A DNA stretch of 64,000 bases from assembly GCA_022579005.1 (NCBI GenBank), contig MU401539.1:1-64000 (forward strand), in the 5' to 3' direction. The notes under the pieces were generated by a model that worked only from the letters and a program-made list of their open reading frames with translations, was not told the origin of the DNA and did not search any database. The translations under genes and the position numbers were made by a program. Shown one piece after another: positions 40,605 through 62,663 of this stretch; position 1 is the first letter of the stretch, and each line of letters begins with the position of its first letter. The stretch comes from Poronia punctata (lineage: Eukaryota; Ascomycota; Sordariomycetes; Xylariales; Xylariaceae).

Positions 40605-42182
40605 CTACGCCTTGGCCCTGGTTACGATCATACGGCAATCACGCTCAGGCTTGGCAGGGAAGGATGCTATGAAGCACTTGGCAGGTAAGAGATTCGGAAT
40701 GCCGTCAGCATCGACATTGTCTGGCCCGAACTTGTTATTCGGGGGCAACGCGATATCGTAGTCTTTGAGGATATTGGCGACGATGGTCAGCATCTCGACC
40801 CAGGCCAGATTGCGACCGATACAATTCCTCGGGCCATACGAAAAGGTAAACAGTGTCTTCTTGGCCTCGTCGTTTCCCACGAACCTTTCGGGTCGGAATC
40901 GCCGGGGCTCGTCCCAGCTCTTCTCGTGCATGTTGACAGAGCGTAAGTTGACGTAAATCTCGGTGCCTGGTGGGATGTAGTGGCCTTGTAGCTCGATACC
41001 TTGACTAGGCGAGACGCGAGGTGTAAGCCCAGCCGTGGTTGGCGATACCCGCAGAGCCTCGCTGACACAGGCCTCGATATACGGAAGCTGGGCCAAAACC
41101 TCTTTATGTAGAATAAGATGATCGGGTGGGAATGCGGAGCGGACTTCTTTGACGGCCTTCTCGAGCTTGTCTGGATGTAATAGGAGCAAGTGAAAGACCC
41201 ACATGATGGCCGAGGATGTGGTCTCGCTACCGGCAAGCATCATCATGATACATTCGGCCTGGATCTCGGAAGGGGACATCTTGGTCTTGGATTCGGGATC
41301 TTCGGCTTCGATGAAAGCTTGCAACAGATCGGCTTGCTCGTCACCTCCTGCTGCCAGCAGCTGCTTGCGTATGTCGGCTGACTCTTTGCTGTACGTCGCC
41401 AGCTCTTGGTACATCCATTTCCACGGTCGCATGAGCCACGGGAAGGGGATGAGAGACAGCAGGCCAAGCACGACCGGGCTATCCAGCAGGTCCATGATGG
41501 TGCCGGATCGTTCCATAATGGAGGAACTGCCCTTGGACATGGTTCCGGGGTCACGGCCAAAAGCTACGGCGCTCATAATGTCAAAGGTGGCAAGCTGAGT
41601 GTCGACGCGATAGTTGACCTCTGCCGCCTGGCCGCCATTCTCGGCAATGAGCTTCTCCCACTTGGCCGCGATGGCCTCGTAACCATGTCGCTGGATGATG
41701 GGCTCCATCTTGTTTAAATAGGCGTAGCTAAAGTACGGACCCATCTGACGCCGCCTCCGAGCAGCTAGAACCGGGTCTCTCTGCGAGACGATGTTCTTGG
41801 TCCCACCATCGTCAAAGATGTCGAAGAAGGGGGCCTTGCAGAAGTTCTGGGTACCCAAAATAGTGCGCACGTCTTCTGGATTGCTAACGCATACGGCATT
41901 TGGCTTATAGACGTAAACATCGCCGTACTTGGCCATGTCCCTCTCTACTCTCTGCGCAACGCGACCGGAGAAATTGTCGAGATCACCTCGCTTGGAGGTC
42001 ACCCGGGCCAACACAGGACCGGGGATCTTGCGCAGGGGCGACAAGAGAAAGGCATGAAGTAATCTTGCCGTGAAGAAACAGACTATGAGGGCGAAGAGGT
42101 ATTGGTAGAAAGCGGCGTTTTTGGCCATGACAGTGGCTCTGTCAACCAGACGGCTGGCCAGATCCAGATCGATAGACAGCAT
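40605..42182 (-). CDS. Fusidane-cluster cytochrome P450, CYP5081-like (helB-type) 1
   Basis: Membrane-anchored monooxygenase, 525 residues from the chosen ATG at 42,182. An upstream in-frame ATG at 42,266 would add 28 residues, but the chosen start gives the same anchor-to-PGP spacing (about 55) as its paralogues. It has an anchor (YLFALIVCFFTARLLHAFLL), then SPLRKIPGP, the I-helix AGSETTSSAI, ExxR in SEALRV and the haem loop FSYGPRNCIG (Cys454). Exactly 69 residues follow the haem loop, ending with PERDCR near the C-terminus as in the three other cluster P450s. Single exon. It is the outermost gene of the cluster. It should oxidise the protostane skeleton at the ER. Which of helB1-helB4 it equals cannot be decided here. 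Confidence 0.85.
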   Translation of the reverse strand: MLSIDLDLASRLVDRATVMAKNAAFYQYLFALIVCFFTARLLHAFLLSPLRKIPGPVLARVTSKRGDLDNFSGRVAQRVERDMAKYGDVYVYKPNAVCVSNPEDVRTILGTQNFCKAPFFDIFDDGGTKNIVSQRDPVLAARRRRQMGPYFSYAYLNKMEPIIQRHGYEAIAAKWEKLIAENGGQAAEVNYRVDTQLATFDIMSAVAFGRDPGTMSKGSSSIMERSGTIMDLLDSPVVLGLLSLIPFPWLMRPWKWMYQELATYSKESADIRKQLLAAGGDEQADLLQAFIEAEDPESKTKMSPSEIQAECIMMMLAGSETTSSAIMWVFHLLLLHPDKLEKAVKEVRSAFPPDHLILHKEVLAQLPYIEACVSEALRVSPTTAGLTPRVSPSQGIELQGHYIPPGTEIYVNLRSVNMHEKSWDEPRRFRPERFVGNDEAKKTLFTFSYGPRNCIGRNLAWVEMLTIVANILKDYDIALPPNNKFGPDNVDADGIPNLLPAKCFIASFPAKPERDCRMIVTRAKA

Positions 42183-43265
42183 GGTGGAAGGTAACCTGCG
42201 ACTCGAGTCTGGGTGATGATTCTGCTGACACTCTACGACAGACTCATCCAGGTTCGTGTTGATCAAAGAAAAGAGGTCTCGGAGATTCTCTCGCTCTCAA
42301 ACCCCTTGATGACTTGGATATCGACATCCCGGTCAGAGCCGACCCGACATAATAGCGTCTTCACTTTATCGGGTCAACATACGGACTCCCAAGCCCAGAA
42401 ATCCAATGGACCATATCTGTCGAGTCACCTCGTATCTTGGGGTCCACAGTAGGTACAACCAGGAGATCCAAGGAGACAGGTCCATCTCCCAATGTACCAT
42501 GATGGTGTGTTCATATCCAAGTACTTCACTCTCAAGGTACTTGAATTGCAACAGGAGTATACGTAGTGAAACTGACGAAAGGGGACCAGCCTCAGGTGAA
42601 CTTGTGAAGGGATCTTGCCATGTGGGTCGCGCCAAGCGCCCGTCGTACAGTGTCAGATCCCACACACCACGGTGCCCACGGAACAAGGGTCAGGTTAGCG
42701 ACGGAAGAAACCGCACTTCTTACACAGTGCAAGATGGCCATATCGTTGCCCGCGGCATTCCAGCTGGTGCCCCTCCGCGGTCCGATTCCGCCTTCTGTGT
42801 TAATCACCTTTTTCATGCCATCATATGTTTACATTGAAACGTAGTGTGATAACAATAATAGATTTTGCAAAAGAGCTCTTCGAGGTTTTCCCGAAGCGAG
42901 AAAAACTAGTAAAAGCCACAGAAAACCCTGAATTCTTAGTATCTTGGAATTCTAGAAATGATTATTTGTGTTTTCTTTACGACAAGACGCGTCGTGCCAA
43001 GGGGACCGACTGGCGCCACAATGCTTGGGAATGGCAATCTTCCTTCTACTGTCATTCGAGACGTAAGCTCATACAGGTGGTCAATCCGGTTGTTATTACT
43101 GCTATACACGACGCTCTGAAGTGCGATGGGTGTATCGAGGACTTCTTGATCGCATCCCTCTAAGCCGACGGCGCTTCGCATGGCATATTAGAATAACAGC
43201 AGATGCATAGGAACAAAATGACCATACTGTAAATCTACCTAGTTATCTATACAAAATACGTTGTC
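42183..43265. other. Intergenic region between two tandem P450 genes
   Basis: Holds the 5' region of the left P450 and the 3' end of the right P450, both on the minus strand. Short frames on both strands lack recognisable motifs. I see no RNA gene or strong regulatory palindrome. Confidence 0.5.
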
Positions 43266-44864
43266 TCATGACTTCCTCCTAGCAATAACAATCCGGCAGT
43301 CTCGCTCCGGATACTTCGGTGTGGTGAAAAGTGTGCTCCTCGTAGGCATAATCTTCGGTCTTCCCTTCTCATCAACATTATGCGGCCCACAGACACTATC
43401 GAGCGGGAGAGAAATGTCATAATCCTTCAGTATGTTGGCTAAAATGACCATCATTTCGACCCACGCTAGGTTTCTGCCAATGCAATTTCTATGTCCGTAG
43501 GAAAATGCAAAGACGTTCCGTTTCGCCTCGTCATTGTCCATGAAGCGCGTGGGGTCGTAGTCGTACGGCCGCTCCCATATGTCTTTGTTTACGTGCGCGC
43601 CGTGGAGGTTGATGGCTACTTCTGTTCCGGGAGGGATGTAGTGGCCCTGGATGGTAACCCCATCTTTGTTGTTTATACGAGGTAGGAAACCGGATGTGAT
43701 GGGAGAATAGCGTAGCGTTTCGTAAATGCAAGCTTCGAGGAACGGGAGATGTTTCCGGCACTCGTCGAAGCCGATGGTGTGATCGGGAGCAAACTGGGAG
43801 CGGACTTCCTCGATGCAACGACGAAGGTGTTGCGGGTACAGAGTCAAGAGGTGAATAACCCAAGACGTGACGAAAGAGGTCGACTCGCTTCCTGCCAGCT
43901 GCATTGCTATACTTTCCGTCGAGACCTCGTGGGGGGTCATGCGGACCTTTTCATTTTCGGGGTCTTCGGCATCAAGGAGTGCCTGTAGTAGGTCCACCGG
44001 CTTCTCTTTACTCGACGGATCAGACAAAAGATCGCGTCGCTGACGGACCGATTCCTCGCTGTACGTAATGAAGCTATCGAATAACGACTTCTTCTTTTCG
44101 ATGAGCTTGGAGAATGGAGGGTAGTTGAGGAAGGGAAAGTTCTTGGTCATGCCCAAGTAGAAGCCCGTGGCCTCGATCCACTTGATGATGGTCGGGTCAT
44201 CGTTGGCTAGCGAGTTGAACTCCCTGCCAAAGGCCAGCGCGCCAATGGTGTCGAAAGTGGCATATTGCGTATCGTTGCGGAAGTTGACGGTGACGGGCTT
44301 GCCCCCGGCTTCGTCGAGCATGCGGTCCCATTTCTCTTTGATGGCGACGATACTGTACTTCAGTATAAGGGGTTCCATGCGGCCGAGGAAACCAAAGTTC
44401 ATGTAAGGGCCGAGCTGGCGACGTCGTTGACTGGCTTGGGCCGCGTCCCTGGTCGTGAAGATGCTCGCGCGACCCTTGATGTCGAGCATCTTGTAGATGT
44501 CCGTCTTGCGAAACTCATAGCTCGTGAGGATGGTTTTGATATCTTTGGGATTACTGATGCTGATTCCGGACGGCTTGTTCACGTAGATGTCGCCAAAGGT
44601 CTCGTAGTCAACCTGTACCGACTTGGACCCTTGAGCAAAGACGCGCTTGAGGATGGAATGGAGGGCAGAGACTCGTGAGAGTGTCGGTCCGGGAATCTTT
44701 CGCAGGGGTGAGAAATAGAGGTTATAGATGAGTCTGTAGACGAAGAGGATCAAGAGCCATGTCGCAACAAGACGACCATAGCCATATTGAGCTATCAGCT
44801 GATGTAGCTGTTGACCGTCGATTGTTCCCGATATCATGTCGACTGCTGGGACGATGAAAAGCAA
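43266..44864 (-). CDS. Fusidane-cluster cytochrome P450, CYP5081-like (helB-type) 2
   Basis: 532 residues in one exon. A second ATG nine codons in is also possible. The anchor lies at about residues 33-50 ([20 protein letters not shown]), followed by SPLRKIPGP. The C-helix region has [20 protein letters not shown], the I-helix [12 protein letters not shown] (Ser where most P450s have the first Thr), ExxR in YETLRY and the haem loop [10 protein letters not shown] with Cys461. The 69-residue tail after the haem loop matches the other cluster P450s. It lies between another P450 and the cyclase, all on the minus strand. Expected role: hydroxylation or multi-step methyl oxidation of protostadienol-derived intermediates. 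Exact position unknown. Confidence 0.85.
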
Positions 44865-46342: not shown

Positions 46343-48556
46343 CTATGCGTCATCCCCAAACTCGTCGATATACTTGCCAAGAACGGCCAATGTGAAATGA
46401 AACTTGTAGTTGGGATATCTCATTCCGCCTGGACTGGCAAAGATTCCCTCGAGCGAACCTGGCAACCACTCTCCCGTCTTCTGCTGTTCCCTCACCAGCC
46501 ATTGGATCCCCCTCTTAATAGCAACGTGATCTGAGCAGTGCGCTGCTATCAATCCCGTAAGAGCATATGCCGTGCATGTGACCTGACTGCCTGCAGGATC
46601 CTGAATGTAACGTTTAAGCTTCAGACTGAGAAGATCTTCTCCCCAGCCGCCGTCCGAGTTCTGGTATCGGAGGAGGAACTGACACGCCTTTGCGCAAGCC
46701 TCGTTGTTGCTCTCGTCCAAGCCGGCAGTCTGTAGACCTTGGAGAGCAAACATGGTGGCATACGTAAAGCAGACGCCCCAAGTGGCGATCCATCCACCAT
46801 CGGGGAACTGGGATCCGTACAGGTAATTGATGCAGTTATTCATGCACGATGAAATCTCCTGGGCTCTGTAGTCTGGGTACTCCTTTCTAAAGGTATCGAG
46901 ACACATGAGCACGGAGCTGGTGCACTCGGGATACAGGTTATCCGTCATCACGTCTTCGTATAATTCGGTAATGTTGAGGAGTTCCAGCAGCTTAGGGGCA
47001 CGGATGGGCTCAAAGGCAGAATATCCGCCACAAGCATTCTCCATCCCCAGCAGCAGGTCCACAGCCTCTTTTAACCTGTCGTCCGAGACGAGCTTTGGGA
47101 CGACACCCGTAGCTTGTAGCTGTATCACGGCCCTGACGGTTTCTGCTGTCGTGTCAGAAACCGCGTAGGACTGGTCCTTGGTGCTAAAAGGCCATGCTCC
47201 TTTCGTAGATTGTCGGTATACATGGTGAGCGCCCAAGGGATCCTCACGGATCTGCGACGCTTCGATGAACTCGAGGGCTCTGAGCATGATTTCTCGGTTC
47301 TCGGGCTTCACAGCAAGACCGGAGTCGAGAGCGGCTTGGACGGTGAAGACGGTATCCCAGAGAGAAGTGCCGTTTGTTCCCGACGCTGCCAGTCCCTCGC
47401 GACACATCCACATGGGATCGATGATGCGTTCCTGCATTTTACTGATCCATTTGCTCTCCTTGCCGTGTGCGTGGAATAGGACAAGCATGTTGGATGCGAA
47501 GCTGACGGGAGCGATGCAGAGACCGTTTGTGTTGGTCACTTCGGCCTCTACCTGGAAGAGTGCTTCCCGGATAGCCGCCTTGCGCAGGAATGGCACCTGC
47601 CACCGTTCGTAGCCACAGAGAGCCTTGGTGACGAGCTTCTGGATGTTTGTAATGGGCGATAACCGATCGTGCTCGCTGATATTGTTCCGTTGCGCGAACC
47701 AGTCAATCTTTTCATACTCCATGTCGTATAATTCGCGCCGCAGCTCCTTGGTCAGGGGCGTGAGGGGATGAGAGAAGCGGGTGCCGTAGAGATAGCTCAT
47801 GCTGACAAAGACATTGCGTACATGCACCCACCAACGACCGGGGTTTAATGGTGTGGCAGCGGGTGCGAGGAGGGGTTCCGGAATCAGGGGGATGACTCCA
47901 TCCCAGTCATACACGCCCAGGACGCACATCCAGAACTTGCCCCAGGTTGGTAGAGCGCGAGCACTTCCCATCCGATGAAGCGCCTTGCGGGCGGCTGCGA
48001 GGACGGGATGGTCTGGAGAAACACCGAGAATGCGCAGCATCGTGTAGTTCATAGAGGTCCCGAACACGGTAGAAGAACTGTTTATCCACAAGCCCCAACC
48101 TCCCTCCTCGTTGGCAAAGTTCATCAGATAGCGAATCATCTCATCTTTCATGTGTTGTGGCAGCTCGATGCCGATGATATAGGAGGATATGACGATGCCA
48201 CTTGTGACAAACAGCGGGCCATCGTCGTTGCAGCCCCAGTGACCGTCTTGTGTTTGTAGACGCTTGAAGAAGTTCCAGCCGTTGTCTAGGGCTTCTCGGG
48301 GCGTGCTGGCGGGCTTGTTCTGTCGTAATTCGTACTCCCGGCCCAGCCAGTAGTTTTCTAGAAAGCTTTGAGGTGGTACGGACTTGTCGTCTTCACTGGT
48401 GTATTCCCAGATATGACGTCCGTTGTCCACACGGAGTCTCCATCTTGTGAGATCGGTACGGTACTCGGACGCTGCTGCTGTATCGTAGTGCTGCGCCTTT
48501 CCCACCACAACCGCCTCACGTCTTGTAGAGGTTTGGGAGACAGTTGTTGTAGACAT
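46343..48556 (-). CDS. helA: Oxidosqualene cyclase: protostadienol synthase
   Basis: 737 residues in a single exon, the normal length for fungal oxidosqualene cyclases. It converts (3S)-2,3-oxidosqualene to a tetracyclic triterpene at the ER membrane. Catalytic acid motif: DTTAE at 468-472, with Asp468 protonating the epoxide. Several QW-type repeats are visible (DGHWGCNDDGPLF about 104-116, EEGGWGLW 150-157, DGGWIATWG 586-594, SDGGWGED 634-641, TGEW 694-697). Near the C-terminus, ASPGGMR (707-713) corresponds to the APPGGMR segment reported to distinguish Aspergillus fumigatus protostadienol synthase from lanosterol synthase, which has NKSCAIS there. This points to protosta-17(20)Z,24-dien-3beta-ol, the fusidane precursor, so it is a dedicated enzyme and not the housekeeping ERG7. 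It shares a 1.67-kb divergent promoter region with the SDR gene. Confidence 0.93.
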   Translation of the reverse strand: MSTTTVSQTSTRREAVVVGKAQHYDTAAASEYRTDLTRWRLRVDNGRHIWEYTSEDDKSVPPQSFLENYWLGREYELRQNKPASTPREALDNGWNFFKRLQTQDGHWGCNDDGPLFVTSGIVISSYIIGIELPQHMKDEMIRYLMNFANEEGGWGLWINSSSTVFGTSMNYTMLRILGVSPDHPVLAAARKALHRMGSARALPTWGKFWMCVLGVYDWDGVIPLIPEPLLAPAATPLNPGRWWVHVRNVFVSMSYLYGTRFSHPLTPLTKELRRELYDMEYEKIDWFAQRNNISEHDRLSPITNIQKLVTKALCGYERWQVPFLRKAAIREALFQVEAEVTNTNGLCIAPVSFASNMLVLFHAHGKESKWISKMQERIIDPMWMCREGLAASGTNGTSLWDTVFTVQAALDSGLAVKPENREIMLRALEFIEASQIREDPLGAHHVYRQSTKGAWPFSTKDQSYAVSDTTAETVRAVIQLQATGVVPKLVSDDRLKEAVDLLLGMENACGGYSAFEPIRAPKLLELLNITELYEDVMTDNLYPECTSSVLMCLDTFRKEYPDYRAQEISSCMNNCINYLYGSQFPDGGWIATWGVCFTYATMFALQGLQTAGLDESNNEACAKACQFLLRYQNSDGGWGEDLLSLKLKRYIQDPAGSQVTCTAYALTGLIAAHCSDHVAIKRGIQWLVREQQKTGEWLPGSLEGIFASPGGMRYPNYKFHFTLAVLGKYIDEFGDDA

Positions 48557-50230: not shown

Positions 50231-51025
50231 ATGTCAAAGACTTCAGAGACCGCGATAGTCACAGGCGCCGCTCAAGGCGTTGGCCTAGCAACAGCAAAGC
50301 TTCTCGCAGCCCGCGGTCTAAAAGTAGTCGTCAGTGACGTAAATGTCGAAGCAGGAGAAGCCGCCACGGCAGACATCAACAAAGAACACGGCGATGGAAC
50401 AGCCGTCTTCATCCCTTGTGATCTGTCCAAGACGGAAGACATCGATCAACTGATCTCCAAAACCGTTGAGAAATTCGGCACATTTTCCATCCTGGTCAAC
50501 AATGCCGGTTACTTGAGAGCACCTTTCCTAGCTATCGACGCTGAACACATCAAAGACACAATCGCCATCAATCTCACAGCCACGGTGTATTCCACCCACC
50601 AAGCCATCAAGTTCTGGGAAGACCACCCGGACATCAGGGGACAGGTCGTCAACGTGACATCTTCCTCATCCTTCAAGACCTACGCCAGTATCGCAGCGTA
50701 CGGCGCAGCGAAAGCCGGAGCGGCGCAATTCACGTTCGCTTGCCGCTCGTTCGGCCCGCGTATACGCATCAATGCTGTGGCACCTACTGCTATCGCGACG
50801 GCGTTTGATAAGAGCACCATCATGCGTGTGCCGACGGAAAAGTCTGGGCCAGGGTATACGCCCGAGGAGGAGATGAGGAATATGGGTCTTGCCCGTCTGC
50901 AACCGGAAGATGTCGCGAGGACGGTGTTGGAGTGTATTGATGATGAGACGAGGTTTGGAAAAGTTGTTCATTTAGATGCAACTGAGGGACAGACTGTGCA
51001 TGGAGGGTTCTTGGGAGAGGCCTAA
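50231..51025 (+). CDS. helC: Short-chain dehydrogenase/reductase of the fusidane pathway
   Basis: 264 residues, a classical-length SDR. Cofactor glycine motif TGAAQGVG (11-18), Asp36 at the end of beta-2 (VVVSDVN) suggesting NAD rather than NADP, NNAG at 90-93, catalytic Ser around 144-147 in a run of four Ser, and YxxxK as YGAAK with Tyr157 and Lys161. In helvolic acid biosynthesis the SDR works with a P450 in the unusual C-4 demethylation: after a C-4 methyl is oxidised to a carboxylate, it oxidises C-3 and decarboxylation follows. The position opposite the cyclase, and the cluster content, support this assignment. The C-terminal residues (EGQTVHGGF) contain no membrane segment. Its stop is 162 bp from the stop of the convergent P450. 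Confidence 0.88.
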   Translation: MSKTSETAIVTGAAQGVGLATAKLLAARGLKVVVSDVNVEAGEAATADINKEHGDGTAVFIPCDLSKTEDIDQLISKTVEKFGTFSILVNNAGYLRAPFLAIDAEHIKDTIAINLTATVYSTHQAIKFWEDHPDIRGQVVNVTSSSSFKTYASIAAYGAAKAGAAQFTFACRSFGPRIRINAVAPTAIATAFDKSTIMRVPTEKSGPGYTPEEEMRNMGLARLQPEDVARTVLECIDDETRFGKVVHLDATEGQTVHGGFLGEA

Positions 51026-51187
51026 ATGTAGGTAATTTCTAGGAGTTATATTGGCAAAAACAGGGAAATCGGGTAATACAGAAAATCCTACTACTAGAGA
51101 GACATGTTTACATGGTAAACGAAATTGTAATAGAAAGATAGACAACGATAATACCGCATCAATTTCTCTTTCTCTTACACATATAAT

Positions 51188-52759
51188 CTACACCACTCTC
51201 TTCCTAATCCTAAGTCTACAGTCCCTTTCCGAATCAACAGGCGCAAAAACAATATGACACTCGGAAGGCATCATCTTCGGAATCCCCCTTTCATCCAGAT
51301 TCGCCGGACCAAACACCGCATCCTCCGGCAACGAGATATCATAATCCTTTAGCAAATTCGCCAGAATAGTCATAATCTCAATCCAAGCCAGATTCCTCCC
51401 CACACAACTTCTCGGTCCATACGAAAAGGCAAAAATATTCCTCTTCGCCTCCTCGTTCCCGATAAATCTATCCGGAATAAACTTTTCCGGCTGATCCCAG
51501 ATATCCGGTCGATTATTCAGTGCAAGTAGATTAAACGCGACGACGGTACCCGACGGGATGAAATGCCCCTGTAACTCGAGATCCTTCGTCGAACGTCTAG
51601 GCATGAAACCCGAAGTAATAGGCGCATATCTAAACACCTCATAGACGAACGATTCGAGAAAGGGGAGATGATCACGACTATCCTTATACGTAACCGTATG
51701 CTCCAGCCGAAAACAACTCCTCACTTCCTCCGTAGCCCGTTTCAACGCATCCGGATACAGGGTAAGGAGATGCAAAGCCCAGGTAAGCGAAGCAGACGTC
51801 GTCTCGCTTCCAGCAAGTTGCATCCCCACACTCTCGGCCTGGACCTCAACAGCCGACATTTTGACTTTCGAATCCGGATCTTCCGCATCGATAAACGCTT
51901 GGAGCATGTCCGCGTATTTGACATCTGGGTTATTGCTCAGAGCTTCTTTTCGCTGCGAGACGGATTGTTCGCCATAGTTGACGAATTCGCGATATTTGCT
52001 CAACCATTTGCGTAGGAGGAGCGAAAAGGGGAAGTTGAGCATCCATTTGAAATTCATGCTGACGCCGATGAATACTGCCGTGGCAGAGATCCAATCGACG
52101 ATTTTGGCGCCGTCTGTCGGGTTGGAATGCACCCGTCCGAAAGCAAGGGCACTCATGATGCGAAAGGTAGCCAGTTGAGTGTCATTGCGATAATTAATCT
52201 CGATGGGGTTTCCCTTTGCGAGCTCCAGCTGTTTATCCCATTTCTGCTTGAGGGCTTGAATCCCATGTTCGAGGATGACGGCTTCCATCTTGGCTAGATA
52301 TCCCGGGCCGTTGAGGAAAGGGGTGATTTGTCTTCTTCTGCGACTCGCGAGCTGCGGATCACTGAATGTGACGAGATTGCTCATGACAGGGTCGGCGAGA
52401 TCTTTGTACATGTCGATCTTCCACGAGTCCTTGGCTCCTAGGACCTGTTGGACGTCCTTTGGATGACATATTGTGACGGTGTCTGGTTTGGAGATGTAGA
52501 TGTCGCCAAATTGGTAAAAGTCTTCTAGACCTGCTTTCGCTACTCTTTTTGGTAGCCTCCTCGAGATGGCCCTGAGAGGAGTGAGACGGGCTATCAATGG
52601 TCCTGGGATATGGCGCAAGGGGGAGAGGAATAGTGCACGGATGAACTTCCAGAGAAGGCCAACGACGACAATGATGAGTATGGTCTGTTTGATGCCGCTG
52701 TTCTGGATACGGAGGGTTTCTCCAATCCCTTGAAGTCCGTCTTTCATCAGGTTGGACAT
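51188..52759 (-). CDS. Fusidane-cluster cytochrome P450, CYP5081-like (helB-type) 3
   Basis: 523 residues from the ATG at 52,759. The frame stays open to an ATG at 52,864, but the longer N-terminus (SCLISHHMRRWLVWGSKHRQ) does not resemble an anchor, and the chosen start matches paralogue spacing. Anchor ILIIVVVGLLWKFIRALFL, then SPLRHIPGP; I-helix AGSETTSASLTW; ExxR in YEVFRY; haem loop FSYGPRSCVG with Cys452; 69-residue tail with SERDCR in place of PERDCR. It adjoins the SDR, the position held by helB3 in A. fumigatus as I recall its gene order, so helB3 is a tentative guess by synteny only. Confidence 0.85.
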   Translation of the reverse strand: MSNLMKDGLQGIGETLRIQNSGIKQTILIIVVVGLLWKFIRALFLSPLRHIPGPLIARLTPLRAISRRLPKRVAKAGLEDFYQFGDIYISKPDTVTICHPKDVQQVLGAKDSWKIDMYKDLADPVMSNLVTFSDPQLASRRRRQITPFLNGPGYLAKMEAVILEHGIQALKQKWDKQLELAKGNPIEINYRNDTQLATFRIMSALAFGRVHSNPTDGAKIVDWISATAVFIGVSMNFKWMLNFPFSLLLRKWLSKYREFVNYGEQSVSQRKEALSNNPDVKYADMLQAFIDAEDPDSKVKMSAVEVQAESVGMQLAGSETTSASLTWALHLLTLYPDALKRATEEVRSCFRLEHTVTYKDSRDHLPFLESFVYEVFRYAPITSGFMPRRSTKDLELQGHFIPSGTVVAFNLLALNNRPDIWDQPEKFIPDRFIGNEEAKRNIFAFSYGPRSCVGRNLAWIEIMTILANLLKDYDISLPEDAVFGPANLDERGIPKMMPSECHIVFAPVDSERDCRLRIRKRVV

Positions 52760-54108
52760 GGTTGTGACTGAGTGCTGCCTATGTTTACTCCCCCAAACGA
52801 GCCAACGGCGCATGTGATGGGATATCAGACAAGACCCTCCTCCTTGGTAGGTACATCCATACACAGGTAGGCAAGATGTACTACTACTACAGTACTACTA
52901 CTACCTGGACTACTTTTTTGGCCCAAGTTCCGTTTAACCGTTCTGGTCAAGAACTGTAACCGAGGAAGAGAGCTCGACAAGCGGAATACTCCGAAAGGGA
53001 ATAAATTGGGAACGATGGGACAGCGATAAGTTGTTATGCCGTAATTACACAAAAACTCCAATTTTCTTCGAACCCTCGCCTCTTCGGACTAAAACTAGGT
53101 ATTCTCTTCCAGTGACATCGCGTTATCTCGTCATTATTTAGTGGCGGCGAGGCGGGTAGCCAAGGATGAAGGCGTCGTCGAAGCTCTTGTAAGTGCTATA
53201 GCCTATAGGCTGTCTCTATCTTTAGTTGTTCTTGGCACGGAGAAGGGGCGTGTATTTATCTCTAGCGCGGTACAGGTACTTCATTGTCGGAGTGGGGGGT
53301 ATGTACAGCGCCTAAACGGGATGAATACGACAAGGTACTTGCAGGGGGAATACCCGGCAAACCTGTGATGAACTTTTATAGCCTACGATCTACATTACCT
53401 ACTTCAGCCGCACGTACGTAACAAACAAAAGAAAAGCCCCGCAAGGGCGTATCTGCCCCGTATTTCTCCTTGGACTGGGAAAAATACATGGATCTTCCCC
53501 AGAGTAGCCTATTCAACCTTAGTCATCGCTACCACGTCAAAACTAACATCCTAAGCTTCTTCATAGTCAACAGCCACCACTGCAATCAAGAGTTTTAGGA
53601 CCGGATGAGAACTGCCACTTTCCTGTTTCGGAGAGCGAAGATCGAGATGGGTAACACAGTTGACTAGGCCAAGAAACATACCGTTTACCAGTACCTGTGT
53701 ACTGCATTACGTTTCAACCATCGAGGACGGTAATGGGCCCATGTACTACATAACTTATGCACAGATGAGGCGATGTCTCTGAGCTTTGAACTGCTCGTGC
53801 GGGGCTTTGCAACGGGTTTCCAGGCCGGCGGGCAGAGCTTCTGGAAGAATGTACCCACCGCATATCTCTGTGATAAGATAACCAACTGCATTTGCGTGAT
53901 GGCCTGCCGACAGTGGGATCCGTGGGAAGCCGAGAGCGCGTGGGTGGGCTGAAGTTTGAACCGGTCAAGAATTCTCTGGGGATATTACCAGGAAACGGCC
54001 GATTATCACTCACTTCCACGAGGCATACTGTTGCTCCGCCAAGGTCCCTATCCCACCCCTGCACACCATCTGATCGAGTGGCATAGACAATTGACAAGTC
54101 TATCTGCA
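52760..54108. promoter_or_regulatory. Divergent promoter region of P450 3 (-) and acyltransferase 1 (+)
   Basis: 1.35 kb. Contains a CGG-AATACT-CCG palindrome (52,982-52,993) and AACGGCCGAT (53,994-54,003), about 105 bp upstream of the acyltransferase ATG. The latter is the reverse complement of the TCGGCCGT motif found twice upstream of the cyclase/SDR pair. Short frames here have no recognisable motif. Confidence 0.5.
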
Positions 54109-55500
54109 ATGGAAGACACTCTAAGACATCTCAGCCATCAGGCATACGACTTGTCTCCCCTCGACATCATCCCCAATCATTTGTACCTCACAAACATCTT
54201 CTTTTTTGAGAACAGCCAGCCAGAAAAGGGGAAGTTCATCCCTGAGGATGTCCTGAAAGACTCCTTCTACGATGCCTTGGGGAAATTCCCTATTCTGTTA
54301 GGACACCTGAAGCCTAATGGGTTGAACAACATGCATATTGTGGTCGAACCCGACCATCCTGTAATACCGGGCTGGGAGTCGTTCGACTCGCCCATCCATT
54401 TCGATGAGGTGAAGAAGCATGGATTTCACCGAGACCATTGGCCTCGAGGCCTCGACGTCGCAGATCCCCTTCTACACGCTGAGAAAGGGGTACCGCCAAA
54501 GCTAGTTCGTGTCCGGGTCTGCAGATTTGCAGATAACAGCGGCTTAGCATTGGTTGTGCGTTTATCTCACAGCGTTTTCGACGCAAAAGGGTGCACATTC
54601 TTCATCAACCATTGGGCGGCCTGTTGTCGTAGGAGACTAAAGCCGGCCGAGAATCCTGATCCAGTCGAGGAGCCTATTATGGATCGGGCCACGATGTATT
54701 CACATCTCTCCCCTGGTGTTCGACCCACGCCGCTGAGTTGGGTTCTATGGCCCGTCTCTTTTCTCGTCGTAAAGCTCCTCGTACTGGTAGAGATGTTTAG
54801 AGGCAAGCAGACGAGCACGGGGACGTCTCAGAGCCATCTCTTCTGCTTGTCCAGAGATAGACTGGAACGGCTCAAGAGGGACGGGCCAAAGGAGAAGCGC
54901 ATATCTGACAACGATATCGTCACCGCCCTCTTCACCATGGTCTATGCACAGTTATTGCAGACTAGGCAGCAGAGCGGTCGCGGTTCTAAGCTACCAAAGG
55001 AAATCACCGCCATAGTCCCATGCGACTTTAGACATCGACTAGGCGTGCCCGAGAACTACACGGGAAGCTGCGCCGTAGGTCTTTACGTGACCTGCTCGTT
55101 CGATCTATTAGTTCAGCCGATGGCGTCACCGGCCTTGTCTGAAGTAGCAGCCATCTCGCGTCGGACGATAGATGGCGTGGACGCAAAGATCATCGAAGGT
55201 TTCGCGAAACGGGCCATGATGGCTGTGAAGATGATGGGAGAAAAGGTGAGAATCCTGTATTCGCTCATGGTCGCGCAGGCTTTCTCGAATCAAAGCCGTT
55301 TGCCATTCTACGAGGCCGATTTCGGAGGTGGGCAGCCCCTGTTCTTTGCACCCATGGCTTATTCCAAGAGTCTTGCGGTTATAGTCCCTTCTCCTCCGTC
55401 AAGTCGGGATGTCCATGTTTTCCTGACGTTGGAAGTGGACGATATGAAAGTGGTCATGGGAAATAAAGACTTTCGGAATATGGTTGAGATTGTATATTAG
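54109..55500 (+). CDS. BAHD/transferase-family O-acyltransferase 1 (helD-type)
   Basis: 463 residues from the ATG at 54,109. The frame is open upstream to 53,956, but that extension reads like translated promoter and contains a candidate regulatory site. The catalytic HxxxD is HSVFD at residues 154-158, and the structural DFGWG motif appears as DFGGG in EADFGGGQP near the C-terminus. Both are placed as in fungal trichothecene 3-O-acetyltransferase-like members of the Transferase family (PF02458). A hydrophobic segment LWPVSFLVVKLLVLVEMF occurs mid-protein. These soluble enzymes move acetyl or propionyl from CoA to a hydroxyl. In helvolic acid assembly one of two such enzymes acylates the C-16 hydroxyl and the other acts on the C-6/C-7 side. 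Which one this is, I cannot tell. It converges on the flavoprotein gene with 171 bp between stops. Confidence 0.85.
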   Translation: MEDTLRHLSHQAYDLSPLDIIPNHLYLTNIFFFENSQPEKGKFIPEDVLKDSFYDALGKFPILLGHLKPNGLNNMHIVVEPDHPVIPGWESFDSPIHFDEVKKHGFHRDHWPRGLDVADPLLHAEKGVPPKLVRVRVCRFADNSGLALVVRLSHSVFDAKGCTFFINHWAACCRRRLKPAENPDPVEEPIMDRATMYSHLSPGVRPTPLSWVLWPVSFLVVKLLVLVEMFRGKQTSTGTSQSHLFCLSRDRLERLKRDGPKEKRISDNDIVTALFTMVYAQLLQTRQQSGRGSKLPKEITAIVPCDFRHRLGVPENYTGSCAVGLYVTCSFDLLVQPMASPALSEVAAISRRTIDGVDAKIIEGFAKRAMMAVKMMGEKVRILYSLMVAQAFSNQSRLPFYEADFGGGQPLFFAPMAYSKSLAVIVPSPPSSRDVHVFLTLEVDDMKVVMGNKDFRNMVEIVY

Positions 55501-55671
55501 TCTATAATGATAACACCATAATGTCTCAGTGTGAAATTCATGTAAGAATGGTCCTCAACTCTGCAAAGCAATGCGACAGTTGGTTACAGAATATCTTCTC
55601 TATTATCATAATATTAATATTTACAATTTATCAATTTCTTGACCTAGAAACTCATCCTATTCGATCCACCC
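55501..55671. other. Short convergent 3' spacer, AT-rich
   Basis: 171 bp between the stops of acyltransferase 1 (+) and the flavoprotein (-). An AT-rich patch (TATTATCATAATATTAATA, about 55,600-55,620) probably serves both 3' ends for polyadenylation. Confidence 0.4.
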
Positions 55672-57453
55672 CTATGCTCTAATACCAGTAGCCATGCTGT
55701 CGGCAGCAATATATGCAAACGTCAAAGCCGGTCCAAGAGTCGAACCCGCCCCAGGGTACGTCCTCCCCATAACACTTGCCGACGTGTTTCCACAAGCATA
55801 TAAGCCGGGAATCGTAGAACCGTCCTCCTTCAACACTCTAGCATGTTCGTCGGTTAACAATCCACCCTTTGTGCCTAGATCTCCGGGAACGACTTCGACT
55901 GCATAGAAGGGAGGTTTCGCTATTGGACCAAGGTTTGGATTTGGACCGACTTTTGGGTCGCCGAAATAGTTGTCGTACGTGTTGTTGCCTCGCCCAAAGT
56001 CCGTATCCACACCATCGGCGGCCATCGCGTTGAATTTACGAATCGTATCCATAAGCCCTGTCACATCGATGCCGATCTTTTGGGCAAGTTCTTCCAACGT
56101 GTCGGCTTTGTGTATGTAACCTGCCTCAAGCCCACGTTTCGGGTCTTGCCGAGGCATCAGCGATCCCAGTGCGTACCGCCTCCGATGGTTCTCGTCGACA
56201 ATCAACCACGCAGGAATAGCCTTGACCTTTTGGTTACGAGCGTATTGTTTGTGACCAGCATCGATGTACGACTCGGCTTCGTTCATGAACCTCGAACCTG
56301 TCGAATCCACGATGATACTGTAGGGTCTCGCCCGCTCCTGCAGGGAGAAGTAGTACTTGCCGAGGTTGGGGTCCAAGATACTCGGCCCCCACCAGGCCTC
56401 GTCCATTAGAGCTGTGGAGGCGCCGACCTCGACAGCGGCTTGGATGGCATCGCCCGTGTCTCCTTCCGGTGTGCTTGTCCACCGAGTGCTTGCTGGCGAA
56501 GGTCCAAACTGGTCTCTCATCTTCTGATTATGCGCAAATCCGCCAGCACACAGCAGAACACCTCGGTTCGCCCGAACTGAACGAATGTCATCACCTTGCC
56601 GTACCTTGGCACCCAAAATAGAACCGTCCGGGGCAGAGATCAGCTCCACAAGTGATGTCGAGCGCCAGACCGGCACCTCGGCCTGTTTGGCAAAGTATAA
56701 AAGTTGGGAGATGAGAGATTGGCCCATAGTTGTCGGGGCTTGTCCCTGCATCTTGAGCCGCATTCCGCGAAGTACGACTTGTACGCCCTTTGCGAAATCT
56801 CGGAATGATGAGCCCGCCCGCGTAAGACTGCTCACCTCGTCCGTGAACAAGGGAGGCGGCTGTCTCGGCCGGGCTCGTAGATAACCACTCCAATCTCCCA
56901 GCTTCTTCAGATCAAAGACATCCGGCTCCACGGTACGGCCCCATTGGCTCATACCGCCCGGCGCAGTGGGATAGTAATCCGGGACGCCTTTGCTGCATCT
57001 CCATTTGAATCCCAACTCGCGCAGGAAGTCGATCATCTCCGGCCCCTTTTCTAGAAAGGCAAGTTTACGTTCCCTTGAAGATGCGGGCCCGACGTCCCTG
57101 ATGACGCTCTCCATGTACTTTAATGCATTTTCCTTGCTATCTTCGACCCCTTGGGCGCGGACGTATGAATTCAGGGGTATCCAGAGACCGGCACCGGAGT
57201 AGGCTGACGACCCTCCCACCTGCTCGTTCTTCTCGATGACAAGTGGTTTGTGGCCGTGGGAGGAAGCTCGCAGGGCCGCCGTCAGTCCTGCGGCGCCTCC
57301 GCCAACAACCAGTACATCTGTGGTAGTATCGAATTTCGTGCCATTGTGCGCGACTGTGGCCGACGTCCTCGAGAGACGGGCTTGTCTAGGCCAGAACCGT
57401 GTTGAAAGTGCACTATGGCATCTCCATGATATTGGTGATCTCATGGCTACCAA
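55672..57453 (-). CDS. helE: 3-ketosteroid-delta1-dehydrogenase-like FAD enzyme
   Basis: 593 residues. After a ~42-residue Arg/Ser-rich N-terminal extension without acidic residues, the Rossmann FAD motif [11 protein letters not shown] begins (GGGAAG at 51-56). [28 protein letters not shown] and the C-terminal [19 protein letters not shown] are the typical blocks of the 3-ketosteroid dehydrogenase/fumarate reductase flavoprotein family. It should introduce the C1-C2 double bond into a 3-keto A ring, the feature that distinguishes helvolic acid from fusidic acid and cephalosporin P1. Its presence is the main reason to predict a helvolic acid-type product. Met4 is an alternative start. The extension resembles a mitochondrial presequence. 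Single exon, convergent with acyltransferase 1 and divergent from acyltransferase 2. Confidence 0.88.
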
Positions 57454-59126: not shown

Positions 59127-60602
59127 ATGGAGAAATACATACAAATCCAAAAGGCCGAGACCTTCCCGCTGTCAGCGTTTGACATGCAAGGGTCCTTCTC
59201 CAACATTCCCTACGTCTTCTTCTACGAAAATGTCAACGCCGAGGACGACACCGACTTCATGAGCAGCTCCTTGCTCAAACAATCTTTAGGAAAAGTCCTC
59301 GAGAGCTTCCCCATCCTCGTCGGTCATATCAGACAGAGAGGAACGGGCAAGATCGAAGTCGTAGTCGACCCAGAAAATCTCAACATCCCAGAGTTTAAAG
59401 AATCTACAGCCGACTCGATCACATACGATGACATCAAAGCCAAAAACTTCGCCTGGGATTCATGGCCCGACAACGTGACCACTGTCGGCGGCTACGCTTT
59501 ACCCGCGCCAGATGACGGCGAGATCAAACTATTAAACGTACATCTCGTACGACTCAAGAATAACACCGGCGTCATGCTCTTCATCAACATCCCCCACTAT
59601 GCTGTCGATGGATCTGGTTATTTCGCCTTTATCCAGAAATGGTCCGCCACAGCGTCTTCCATCCTGAACAGCAGAGACCTTCCCACCACACCAAAACTCG
59701 TCATCGACCGCACCTGCATCAACAAACGACTCCCCACCGACCGGAGACCCCTAGACAAACTTTCCGAATCCCTCTACAGCACGCCCAACCTCCTCTGCGA
59801 CACATTAGCCTGGCTAGCCCCCACAACCCTAGGCAAACTCCTCAGCAGACTCGGAAGTCTCTCCCGTGGAGAAGCCCACCTCTTCCACATCTCCCGCACA
59901 ACACTAACTTCCCTCCGCGACTCCGCCTCCCAACACATCCCCCCCGGAACCCGTCTCAGCACAAACGACATCCTAGTCGCCCTCCTCAGCAAAACCTACG
60001 TCCAATCGCAACCCCAACCAACCCCAAAACCCGGCTGGTTCAGCGCCGCCCCACCCCCAGCAACAGAATTCTTCGTCCGCATACCCTGCGACGCGCGACC
60101 GCGCCTGGGGATGAAAGGAGGAGAAGAAGAAGAAGAAGACGGGTTCACGGGAAACTTACTAATCCCCATGTTCGTCAAAAACACCCTCTCCTCTCTTTCC
60201 GAACCCACTTCCCCATCCACCCTCGCAAGCGCAGCATTAGAAGTACGGAAAACAATAAATTCCATCGACGCCCCTCTCATCGGCGCGTTTCACGACGTGA
60301 TATCCTCCCATCCGAGCGGCCATATGCGGCCATTGGCATTCGCGTCCCGGAATCAGACGACGTCGATGGTGACGACTTCGCAGACGGGTTTCGGACTGTA
60401 TAAGGCCGATTTCGGACATGGGACGCCCGGATGGGTTAGTTTGACGAGGGTGTTTGAGGGGAGTTATACTTTGGCGGCGTTTCTGGAAAGTGCGCCCGGG
60501 CAGGAGGAGGGGGTTAATGTTTTGCTTACGACGAATCAGGTTGCTATGCGGGGGGTTTTGGAGAATGAGTTTTGGAGGGGGAAGACGAGTTTGCTTTGGT
60601 AG
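59127..60602 (+). CDS. BAHD/transferase-family O-acyltransferase 2 (helD-type)
   Basis: 491 residues, one exon, same family as the acyltransferase at 54.1 kb but clearly diverged. Catalytic HxxxD is HYAVD at 157-161, followed by GSGYFAFI. DFGWG appears as DFGHG in YKADFGHGTPGW. A Gly/Glu-rich loop (GGEEEEEDG) sits between RIPCDARPRLG and the next strand and is probably a surface insertion. It uses an acyl-CoA donor to esterify a ring hydroxyl of the fusidane nucleus. Together the two acyltransferases match the helD1/helD2 pair. Gene order alone would suggest D1 for the left and D2 for this one, but this is not established. It faces P450 4 tail to tail. Confidence 0.85.
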   Translation: MEKYIQIQKAETFPLSAFDMQGSFSNIPYVFFYENVNAEDDTDFMSSSLLKQSLGKVLESFPILVGHIRQRGTGKIEVVVDPENLNIPEFKESTADSITYDDIKAKNFAWDSWPDNVTTVGGYALPAPDDGEIKLLNVHLVRLKNNTGVMLFINIPHYAVDGSGYFAFIQKWSATASSILNSRDLPTTPKLVIDRTCINKRLPTDRRPLDKLSESLYSTPNLLCDTLAWLAPTTLGKLLSRLGSLSRGEAHLFHISRTTLTSLRDSASQHIPPGTRLSTNDILVALLSKTYVQSQPQPTPKPGWFSAAPPPATEFFVRIPCDARPRLGMKGGEEEEEDGFTGNLLIPMFVKNTLSSLSEPTSPSTLASAALEVRKTINSIDAPLIGAFHDVISSHPSGHMRPLAFASRNQTTSMVTTSQTGFGLYKADFGHGTPGWVSLTRVFEGSYTLAAFLESAPGQEEGVNVLLTTNQVAMRGVLENEFWRGKTSLLW

Positions 60603-61022
60603 ATTTTTAGGTTCTACTGCAATTGAATGTCTGCTTAATCTGGATAAGATGATGTTCTTTTGTTGCATTTGTGGTATACAAGGTAACAGGTCACTTTGGT
60701 GATAACTCCGGGGGTAGCTACCCCGCATCCCGATGGAGATAGCTCCACCAGATTTCATTGTGAGAATGGCCTTCTTGGATGGTCCGAGTTAACTCAATCA
60801 AACTTTTCGGCTTGTAATTACACCTAGTTCAGACTATTCAAACATAAGCTCTAATCAACTTCTACTAGCAACAACCTTATCCAACATAAGAATCGATCGA
60901 TCAAAGCTACGGGACCATCCGCCATCTCATCAAACTTTGATGCCCCTCGCCCACTGCCCCTCGCCCACTGCCCACTAAATAAAAACAGATCGCTAGGTTA
61001 GCACGAGTCATGCTTCGTTGGT
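60603..61022. other. Convergent 3' spacer with a short tandem repeat
   Basis: 420 bp between the stops of acyltransferase 2 (+) and P450 4 (-). At 60,941-60,975 the 14-bp unit TGCCCCTCGCCCAC occurs twice, followed by half a third copy. No gene seen. Confidence 0.6.
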
Positions 61023-62663
61023 CTAGTCCGCCCTCTTATTCAAAATCATACGACAATCCCTCTCCGGGTTTGCCGGCATAGTCGCGACACCCAACTTCGT
61101 CGGCATGATCTTCGGCCTCCCATTCTCATCCACATTCTCCGGTCGGAAAATAGAATCCTCGGGAAGCTGCACGTCATAATCCTTGAACAGGTTCGCCAGG
61201 GTAATGATCATGACAACCCAAGCCAGATTCTTGCCGATGCAGACACGCGTACCGTATGCGAACGACAACATGTTCCGCTTGGCTTCGTTGTTATCCAGGA
61301 ATCTGCTCGGTTTGAAATCATACGGATCCTCCCATGATTCCTTGTGGATGTGCGCGGCGCACTTATTCGTGACAATCTCCACGCGAGGGGGGATGTAGAA
61401 GCCCTTGATGGTGATGCCCCGGTTATCCGCGATACGTGGAAACGACGTGCTTGCCGTGGGGATGCAGCGCAACGTCTCGTAGATGCAGGCTTCAAGATAA
61501 GGTAATTCCTCGCGACATTCGGCGTGCGTGACGACATGGTCTCTGGGGAACTTCCCGCGAACCTCGGCGACAACACGGGCGAAATCGGCGGGGTAAAGTA
61601 GGAGGAAATGGATGACCCATGAAATAACGGACGAGGTGGATTCAGATCCGCCTACCAGCATGGCGATGCTCTCGGCCTGTACTTCCTCGGGCGTCATGCG
61701 GATTTTTGAATCGGGGTCTTCCGAGTCGATCAAGGCCTGGAGGAGATCGGCTGGCTTATCGGCACCACTGTCGAGTAGTTTCCGTCGGATGGCGACAGAC
61801 TCTTTGCTGAATTCTACCAGCGAATCGTAGGATTGCCTGAGACGCCGTGCCAATATGCTAAAGGGCCACCGCTTAAGCAGAGGGAAGTAATGCGCCATGA
61901 GCATGTACGTAAGCGTGTTGTTGACCCAGCTGGTATAGTCGAGGTTGTTGGTCTCGAGCGCATCGAAATCCCTTCCAAAGACCAAGGCACCGGTGATATC
62001 AAACATGGCCAGTTGCGTGTCCAGTCTGTAGTTCACAATCGTGCGCTTTCCCTTGGCCGAATTGGTCTCGATCATGGCATCCCATCTATTCTTGAGGCTT
62101 GCAAACCCATGCCGGATGATATGCGACTCCATCTTGGCGAGATAGGAGTAGGCGAAGAAGGGATGTAATTGTCTCCGCCGTCTGTTCGCATCGACAGGCT
62201 CGATGAGGGTGCTCACGTTGGGAACACCCTCGTACTCGAAAATCCGGTACATGTCCGTCTTCCGAAACTCGCCCATGGCGAGAACCTTGCGCGCGTCCTC
62301 GGGATCGCAAAGAAAGACGGCATTGGGTTTGGCGAGGTATACATCTCCATGAGCTAGGTAATCCGCCTCTGCCATCTCAGCAGCCTTGCCAGACAAGATG
62401 TGCAGTGTGCCACGCTTCCCAGACAGACGCGCGGCCAGGGGACCGGGGATATGTTTCAGAGGCGAGAAGTAAAGAGCGTAGATGACCTGCCAGGCCCAGT
62501 AACCGACGAAAAGGCCGACGATGGCCCCAGGAAGGCCAGCCTTCTGGATCCATGATGGCAGTATCGGCAGATGTATCTGTATCTGGGACAACGACGAGGA
62601 CTGTGACGATGCCCAAACGAAGGGCCGGCTTTGCCAGTCGGGGAGAAGCGACTCGATAGCCAT
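61023..62663 (-). CDS. Fusidane-cluster cytochrome P450, CYP5081-like (helB-type) 4
   Basis: 546 residues, one exon, with a longer N-terminus than its paralogues (75 residues to PGP versus 54-60). Anchor AIVGLFVGYWAWQVIYALYF, then SPLKHIPGP; NRRRRQLHPFFAYSYLAKME in the C-helix region; I-helix GGSESTSSVISW (Ser at the first Thr position, as in P450 2); ExxR in YETLRC; haem loop FAYGTRVCIG with Cys475; 69-residue tail with PERDCR. It is the rightmost cluster gene. By analogy with known helvolic acid genes it should be one of the enzymes oxidising ring B (C-6/C-7), ring D (C-16) or the side chain, but the sequence does not say which. Confidence 0.85.
   Translation of the reverse strand: MAIESLLPDWQSRPFVWASSQSSSLSQIQIHLPILPSWIQKAGLPGAIVGLFVGYWAWQVIYALYFSPLKHIPGPLAARLSGKRGTLHILSGKAAEMAEADYLAHGDVYLAKPNAVFLCDPEDARKVLAMGEFRKTDMYRIFEYEGVPNVSTLIEPVDANRRRRQLHPFFAYSYLAKMESHIIRHGFASLKNRWDAMIETNSAKGKRTIVNYRLDTQLAMFDITGALVFGRDFDALETNNLDYTSWVNNTLTYMLMAHYFPLLKRWPFSILARRLRQSYDSLVEFSKESVAIRRKLLDSGADKPADLLQALIDSEDPDSKIRMTPEEVQAESIAMLVGGSESTSSVISWVIHFLLLYPADFARVVAEVRGKFPRDHVVTHAECREELPYLEACIYETLRCIPTASTSFPRIADNRGITIKGFYIPPRVEIVTNKCAAHIHKESWEDPYDFKPSRFLDNNEAKRNMLSFAYGTRVCIGKNLAWVVMIITLANLFKDYDVQLPEDSIFRPENVDENGRPKIMPTKLGVATMPANPERDCRMILNKRAD

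What the first reader, a model, noticed from the sequence alone, without database searches (positions are those of the whole stretch)
40605..62663. Complete nine-gene fusidane (helvolic acid-type) triterpenoid cluster
Cyclase, four same-family P450s, SDR, two acyltransferases and a delta1-dehydrogenase-like flavoprotein sit within 22 kb, all with intact motifs. This is the same inventory as the known helvolic acid cluster. The flavoprotein argues for helvolic acid rather than fusidic acid or cephalosporin P1.
Basis: partly seen in the sequence, partly recalled or inferred. Interest (0 to 1): 0.75.

Follow-up and report, generated by a model that had tools for sequence, protein, structure and literature searches.

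The report
Intact fungal helvolic acid gene cluster
A stretch of fungal DNA carries what look like all nine genes needed for making the antibiotic helvolic acid; it is a clean new example of a known antibiotic pathway rather than a new kind of thing.

Summary
Nine uninterrupted genes lie at 40605-62663 with intact motifs. Seven were placed against labelled relatives: the cyclase is HelA-like (PGGMR motif; 86% to Xylariaceae sp. FL0594, 65% to A. fumigatus), the four P450s fall one each in the HelB1, B2, B3 and B4 clades, the two acyltransferases one each in the HelD1 and HelD2 clades. The flavoprotein is a 3-ketosteroid Delta1-dehydrogenase with the catalytic residues kept, the only strong one found in the genome. 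Seven of nine Claviceps digitariae locus tags fit the gene order here; the A. fumigatus order differs. Only one SDR lies in the block, where the fusidic acid and cephalosporin P1 routes use a second. The nine A. fumigatus genes are published as sufficient for helvolic acid, which has also been isolated from a Xylaria endophyte. HelC and HelE rest on family, motifs and position, not on comparison with labelled orthologues; the host was not independently placed; the product is inferred. Verdict: real, intact, ordinary in kind: a new member of the helvolic acid cluster family, probably in a xylarialean fungus.

The parts
40605..42182 (-). HelB1-type cytochrome P450 (by analogy: C-4beta methyl to carboxyl), 525 aa
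   Evidence: Clade with A. lucknowensis helB1 and M. robertsii CYP5081A (100/100); 89% to Nemania serpens, 64% to helB1 A. lucknowensis against 43-50% to labelled B2-B4
43266..44837 (-). HelB4-type P450 (by analogy: C-21 methyl to carboxyl), 523 aa
   Evidence: Clade with helB4 of A. lucknowensis and M. canis; 91% to Nemania serpens, 74% over 407 residues to helB4 A. lucknowensis
46343..48556 (-). HelA-type oxidosqualene:protostadienol cyclase, 737 aa
   Evidence: 86% to Xylariaceae sp. FL0594, 72% M. anisopliae, 65% A. fumigatus; PGGMR motif and tree
50231..51025 (+). SDR in the HelC position (by analogy: C-3 oxidation and decarboxylation), 264 aa
   Evidence: Pfam adh_short 1e-43; TGAAQGVG, NNAG, YGAAK; only match at E<=1e-15 in the genome, 75 candidates scored; not compared with a labelled HelC
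51188..52759 (-). HelB2-type P450 (by analogy: C-16beta hydroxylation), 523 aa; an upstream ATG at 52813 would give 541 aa
   Evidence: Clade with helB2 of A. lucknowensis and A. fumigatus; 84% to FL0594, 64% to helB2 A. lucknowensis
54109..55500 (+). HelD2-type acyltransferase (by analogy: 16-O-acetylation), 463 aa
   Evidence: Same half of the tree as helD2 of A. lucknowensis and A. udagawae, near a JGI-named helvolic C16-acyltransferase; 76% Nemania serpens, 60% the JGI protein, 47% helD2 A. lucknowensis against 31% helD1
55672..57444 (-). HelE-type 3-ketosteroid Delta1-dehydrogenase, 590 aa
   Evidence: PDB 7p18 3-oxosteroid 1-dehydrogenase 1.6e-118, 4c3x 3-ketosteroid dehydrogenase 1.5e-97; 4at0 Delta4-5alpha-dehydrogenase 4.3e-20; Y157, Y393, Y563 and G567 align with residues recalled as catalytic
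59127..60602 (+). HelD1-type acyltransferase (by analogy: 6-O-acetylation), 491 aa
   Evidence: Clade with helD1 A. lucknowensis and a JGI-named helvolic C6-acyltransferase; 73% FL0594, 54% helD1 A. lucknowensis against 32% helD2
61023..62663 (-). HelB3-type P450 (by analogy: dual oxidation at C-6 and C-7), 546 aa
   Evidence: Clade with M. brunneum helB3; 71% to it against 46-52% to labelled B1, B2, B4

Best explanation
This is an intact helvolic acid biosynthetic gene cluster. By analogy with A. fumigatus: HelA cyclises 2,3-oxidosqualene to protostadienol; HelB1 carboxylates C-4beta; HelB2 hydroxylates C-16 and HelD2 acetylates it; HelB4 oxidises C-21 to the acid; HelC oxidises C-3 and brings about decarboxylation; HelB3 puts 6-OH and 7-oxo in place, HelD1 acetylates O-6 and HelE adds the 1,2-double bond. 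Shown here: gene families, clades for seven of nine, intactness and order. Inferred: HelC and HelE orthology, each reaction, expression, and helvolic acid as the end product.
For: Nine intact genes. Cyclase HelA-like with PGGMR (role of the motif in PMC8227516, passages). Each P450 in its own Hel clade, 100/100. Each acyltransferase with its own Hel type. Delta1-KSTD with the residues kept. Nine A. fumigatus genes suffice in A. oryzae (PMC5696383). Same order as Claviceps digitariae tags E4U55_004325 (B3), 4326 (D1), 4328 (D2), 4329 (B2), 4331 (A), 4332 (B4), 4333 (B1), 7 of 9 seen. Helvolic acid isolated from a Xylaria sp. endophyte (PMC3979440, title and start of abstract in a search listing).
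Against: No metabolite or expression data. SDR and flavoprotein not compared with labelled HelC and HelE; the flavoprotein scores below the NCBIfam cut-offs of the Delta1-dehydrogenase models (677 against 789 bits for the best). A. fumigatus HelA lies outside the 17-row clade that holds the window cyclase, though inside the next larger group, which also holds 11 rows in which the PGGMR pattern was not found. A Hapsidospora chrysogenum P450 (P0187) sits in the HelB3 clade, and H. chrysogenum proteins are near the window's HelB2 and HelB4, so the P450s alone do not separate helvolic acid from cephalosporin P1.
Confidence: 0.9

Rival explanations
1. A helvolic acid-type cluster whose end product differs from helvolic acid (another acyl group, or a changed tailoring step).
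For: The acyltransferases are the most diverged of the seven compared (HelD2 44-49%, HelD1 50-54% to the Aspergillus and Clavicipitaceae proteins); Sarocladium oryzae yielded several helvolic acid variants (PMC8877021, passages).
Against: All nine genes are present with intact motifs; seven fall with the Hel types, the acyltransferases near JGI-named C6- and C16-acyltransferases.
Confidence: 0.08
2. A fusidic acid- or cephalosporin P1-type cluster.
For: Six enzymes up to the common intermediate are shared by the three routes (PMC8902786, passages). A H. chrysogenum P450 falls in the HelB3 clade, and H. chrysogenum HelB4 (78%) is the closest named relative outside Nemania among those compared. 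An epimerase-type (extended SDR) gene, with a weak 3Beta_HSD match, lies about 37 kb beyond the block (C86:99468-100460).
Against: A Delta1-KSTD and a HelD1-type acyltransferase are present; one SDR in the block, against a second one (FusC1, CepC2) in those routes; the distant epimerase-type gene lies among ordinary genes; window HelB2 and HelD2 lie apart from the Waltergamsia fusidioides proteins.
Confidence: 0.02
3. A steroid, meroterpenoid or other triterpenoid cluster unrelated to fusidanes.
For: P450s, SDRs, acyltransferases and flavoproteins are common in such clusters (general knowledge).
Against: The cyclase is 65-86% identical to HelA-type proteins with the PGGMR motif, and six further proteins fall with Hel types.
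Confidence: 0.005

Closest known systems
hel cluster of Aspergillus fumigatus (helA, B1, B2, C, B3, D1, B4, D2, E)
   Same: Same nine-gene inventory; HelA 65%, HelB2 59%, HelD1 50% (387 residues) identity.
   Different: Gene order: here B1, B4, A, C, B2, D2, E, D1, B3, against the order of Table 1 of PMC5696383, whose accession numbers run consecutively.
Helvolic acid clusters of Claviceps digitariae and Metarhizium
   Same: Order: C. digitariae tags of 7 of 9 genes fit. The M. anisopliae table (PMC5088523, passages) lists P450, AT, FAD, AT, P450, SDR, OSC, P450, P450, the window order reversed; the passage does not say that rows are in genomic order. H634G_04070 (B4) to H634G_04076 (D1) has the window's spacing.
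   Different: Protein identity 44-75% for the seven compared; no polyketide synthase recognised among the flanking ORFs read, unlike MaPKS18 beside the M. anisopliae cluster.
Hel proteins of Xylariaceae sp. FL0594 and Nemania serpens
   Same: Closest named relatives: FL0594 HelA 86%, B1 87%, B2 84%, D1 73%, D2 73%; Nemania B4 91%, B1 89%, D2 76%.
   Different: Not listed: B3 and B4 for FL0594; A, B2, B3, D1 for Nemania. The lists are capped or the candidates only partly scored, so absence is not shown.
Protostadienol synthase-like gene of Xylaria hypoxylon
   Same: A cyclase similar to the A. fumigatus protostadienol synthase in a xylarialean fungus (PMC8403587, passages).
   Different: Its neighbours showed no significant similarity to hel tailoring enzymes; here nine genes are present.

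Membership tests
helvolic acid cluster | HelA protostadienol synthase (PGGMR motif, tree) | tested here: met
   the genome's other cyclase has NKSCMISYPNYK instead. Product not tested.
helvolic acid cluster | HelB1, HelB2, HelB4 P450s | tested here: met
   one window P450 in each labelled clade
helvolic acid cluster | HelB3 P450 | tested here: met
   clade with M. brunneum helB3, 71% identity; the clade also holds a H. chrysogenum P450
helvolic acid cluster | HelD2 (C-16) and HelD1 (C-6) acyltransferases | tested here: met
   one on each labelled side of the tree; identities 47 against 31% and 54 against 32%
helvolic acid cluster | HelC SDR | tested here: inconclusive
   SDR family, motifs and position fit; no labelled HelC compared
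helvolic acid cluster | HelE 3-ketosteroid Delta1-dehydrogenase | tested here: inconclusive
   Delta1-KSTD by PDB matches and residues; below NCBIfam cut-offs; no labelled fungal HelE compared
helvolic acid cluster | production of helvolic acid | not testable with these tools
   needs culture and LC-MS
fusidic acid or cephalosporin P1 cluster | second SDR (FusC1 or CepC2) in the cluster | tested here: not met
   one SDR among the nine genes; none in the ten flanking-region ORFs; an epimerase-type gene about 37 kb away; FusC1 and CepC2 themselves were not compared
fusidic acid or cephalosporin P1 cluster | no Delta1-KSTD among the enzymes of the route | tested here: not met
   a Delta1-KSTD lies inside the block; enzyme lists of the routes from PMC8902786

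The most novel reading that the evidence does not exclude
The nine-gene block moved as a unit between distant Sordariomycete lineages, keeping the Claviceps/Metarhizium gene order, and its diverged acyltransferases give a new fusidane in this fungus. Shared order with Clavicipitaceae and xylarialean closest relatives fit transfer as well as long vertical retention; neither was tested, as the host could not be placed independently.
Probability: 0.1. Interest if true: 0.4.

Novelty: new member of a known kind. Interest (0 to 1): 0.25.

Why it matters
It adds an intact helvolic acid cluster with conserved gene order, probably in a xylarialean fungus, a group from which helvolic acid has been isolated (PMC3979440, search listing) and in which one survey reported only a cyclase without hel-like tailoring neighbours (PMC8403587, passages). 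It supplies diverged HelD1, HelD2 and HelB3 enzymes for work on fusidane antibiotics, and a data point on how the cluster spread.

Tried and rejected
Fusidic acid or cephalosporin P1 type: judged unlikely on the Delta1-KSTD, the HelD1-type gene and the single SDR in the block. Delta4-(5alpha)-dehydrogenase instead of Delta1: rejected, 4.3e-20 against 1.6e-118 and 1.5e-97. Further hel-like genes in the genome: with HelB4 as query 18 matches at E<=1e-15, four of them the cluster's own and 14 others of 24-37% identity, none of those above 31% over more than 200 residues (83 of 129 candidates scored); with HelD1 only the two cluster acyltransferases at E<=0.001; with the flavoprotein itself and two weak matches, 1.5e-13 and 1.2e-5; with the SDR only itself at E<=1e-15. 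These are lower bounds by the tool's own note. Recent transfer by base composition: GC3 of the nine genes 0.57-0.69 against 0.54-0.78 for ten flanking ORFs; no signal (for eight; the transcription factor and MFS exon were read one base out of frame there and were redone: 0.61 and 0.76).

Limits of the trees: one search used 85 of the 120 listed P450s (of 127 found); two of the 85 are the window's own; P0121, P0122 and 33 of P0203-P0240, mostly early-diverging fungi by name, were left out. One search used 27 of the 120. The cyclase tree used 43 of 120 listed (172 found), the acyltransferase tree 44 of 57 (two of the 13 left out are the window's own). The pattern for PGGMR was met in 22 of the 23 rows P0001-P0023 and in the window, and in none of the other 20 rows; in 13 of those 20 and in P0019 the search pattern found nothing at all, so their motif was not read. 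The trees are quick ones without bootstrap.

Led nowhere: the host's rRNA could not be fetched, so the host was not placed independently. Li 2020 on horizontal transfer of fusidane clusters (PMC7750971, known here only from a reference list) and the fusidic acid paper PMC6437595 are not held. Reports of a full hel cluster in Xylariales were looked for only, mostly as listings; I do not claim that none is in print.
Full report
What is there. The window is the first 64,000 bases of contig C86 (150,797 bases) in a genome of 45.05 Mb and 573 contigs that, by size, introns and best matches, is fungal (inference). Between 40605 and 62663 lie nine long open frames without internal stops, each apparently a single exon. 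Pfam names them p450 (four), squalene/oxidosqualene cyclase, adh_short, Transferase (two) and FAD_binding_2. The usual motifs are present. In 200 base shuffles of the block the longest stop-free frame was 273 codons; the nine frames are 312-748 codons.

Cyclase. The best named match is Xylariaceae sp. FL0594 (86%), then Monosporascus (75%), M. anisopliae (72%), Nannizzia gypsea (71%) and A. fumigatus (65%). It reads ASPGGMRYPNYK; a PGGMR motif is tied to protostadienol formation (PMC8227516, passages). Of the 20 more distant cyclases in the tree, the seven in which the pattern was found read (S/N/T)C(M/A)I-x-YPNYK there, and the genome's own second cyclase on C70 reads NKSCMISYPNYK. The tree puts the window cyclase in a 17-row clade with Metarhizium, Claviceps and dermatophyte proteins; A. 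fumigatus HelA lies just outside it, in a 34-row group that also holds 11 rows where the pattern was not found.

P450s. A search with the four aligned P450s found 127 proteins, 120 listed. In a quick tree of 89 rows and a careful tree of 31 rows they fall one each into clades holding labelled helB1, helB4, helB2 and helB3 proteins, each clade 100/100. Identity to the labelled member of the same clade is 64, 74, 64 and 71%, against 41-52% to the labelled members of the other clades. A Hapsidospora chrysogenum P450 lies in the HelB3 clade on a longer branch, and H. chrysogenum proteins are near the window's HelB2 and HelB4. H. chrysogenum is, by recall, the current name of the cephalosporin P1 producer Acremonium chrysogenum, so the P450s by themselves do not settle the product.

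Acyltransferases. The gene at 54109 lies on the helD2 side of the tree, near a JGI-named helvolic C16-acyltransferase; the gene at 59127 lies with helD1 and a JGI-named C6-acyltransferase.

Flavoprotein and SDR. The flavoprotein matches 3-oxosteroid 1-dehydrogenase 7p18 at 1.6e-118 and 3-ketosteroid dehydrogenase 4c3x at 1.5e-97, and the Delta4-5alpha enzyme 4at0 at 4.3e-20. NCBIfam ranks a 3-ketosteroid-delta-1-dehydrogenase model first, below that model's cut-off (677 against 789 bits). Tyr119, Tyr318, Tyr487 and Gly491 of KSTD1 (residues and numbers recalled; a 20-residue tag in the solved chain is assumed) align with Y157, Y393, Y563 and G567 here. In the genome two further matches are weak, 1.5e-13 and 1.2e-5. 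The SDR fits its family and motifs. No protein search was left for these two, so HelE and HelC are inferred from class and position.

Order. The window reads B1, B4, A, C, B2, D2, E, D1, B3. In Claviceps digitariae the tags run 4325 B3, 4326 D1, 4328 D2, 4329 B2, 4331 A, 4332 B4, 4333 B1; the unseen tags 4327 and 4330 fall where E and C would be. The M. anisopliae table lists the same sequence of families (PMC5088523, passages; that rows are in genomic order is assumed), and the tags H634G_04070 (B4) and H634G_04076 (D1) have the same spacing. A. fumigatus differs (Table 1 of PMC5696383).

How it works. The A. fumigatus pathway (PMC5696383: introduction, part 1 of 2 of the results, discussion) is transferred step by step; nothing biochemical was shown here. 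The branch point is in PMC8902786 (passages): HelB3, HelD1 and HelE lead to helvolic acid, CepC2, CepB4 and CepD2 to cephalosporin P1, FusB1 and FusC1 to fusidic acid. The block has the first set and one SDR. The nearest further SDR-like gene I recognised is an epimerase-type one about 37 kb beyond the block (C86:99468-100460), among MCM, Sua5, COG4, GH7 and Per1 genes.

Surroundings. Bases 1 to about 27,000 are 13-24% GC in 2 kb windows, 16-17% over 9 kb pieces, with a RIP-like dinucleotide signature: composite index 1.15-1.22, against -0.16 and -0.37 for the two gene-rich stretches of the window. A similar block ends the contig. Between the AT block and the cluster lie a Zn2Cys6 transcription factor, an MFS transporter and a P450, the last two apparently with introns; whether they serve the cluster is unknown.

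Host. The closest named Hel proteins are xylarialean, which suggests Xylariales, but this rests on the cluster alone. Helvolic acid is known from a Xylaria endophyte (PMC3979440, search listing), so the product would be no surprise there.

Verdict. The cluster is real, intact and of a known kind; interest is modest.

Noticed in passing
window 1-27000: AT-rich block, 16-17% GC over 9 kb pieces, with a strong RIP-like dinucleotide signature, ending about 13 kb before the cluster. A similar block (13% GC) lies at the far end of the contig, from about C86:144000.
   Followed up: partly
window 28407-37470: Zn2Cys6 transcription factor (28407-29912, +), MFS transporter (about 32207-34112, +) and another kind of P450 (about 35382-37470, -), the last two apparently with introns, between the AT block and the cluster; the nine hel-type genes by contrast look intron-free.
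   Followed up: partly
L013 (G000:C70:151000-153500): The genome's second oxidosqualene cyclase, with the lanosterol synthase-like motif NKSCMISYPNYK, split over two frames as by an intron.
   Followed up: partly
P0022, P0136, P0140, P0148, P0259 (Calcarisporiella thermophila): Relatives of HelA, B1, B4, B3 and D2 with tags 4065-4071 in one fungus; its three P450s and cyclase branch off first in their clades (midpoint-rooted trees), a possible clue to the cluster's origin.
   Followed up: no
listing: No HelB3 relative of FL0594 or Nemania serpens was listed although both have other Hel proteins; a search or annotation gap seems likelier than a loss, as FL0594 has a HelD1-type protein.
   Followed up: no
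window 46343-48556: The cyclase reads DTTAE, as do 16 of the 23 rows P0001-P0023; FL0594 reads DCTAE and Claviceps digitariae DSTAE; three more distant cyclases (P0097, P0105, P0108) read DCTAE.
   Followed up: no
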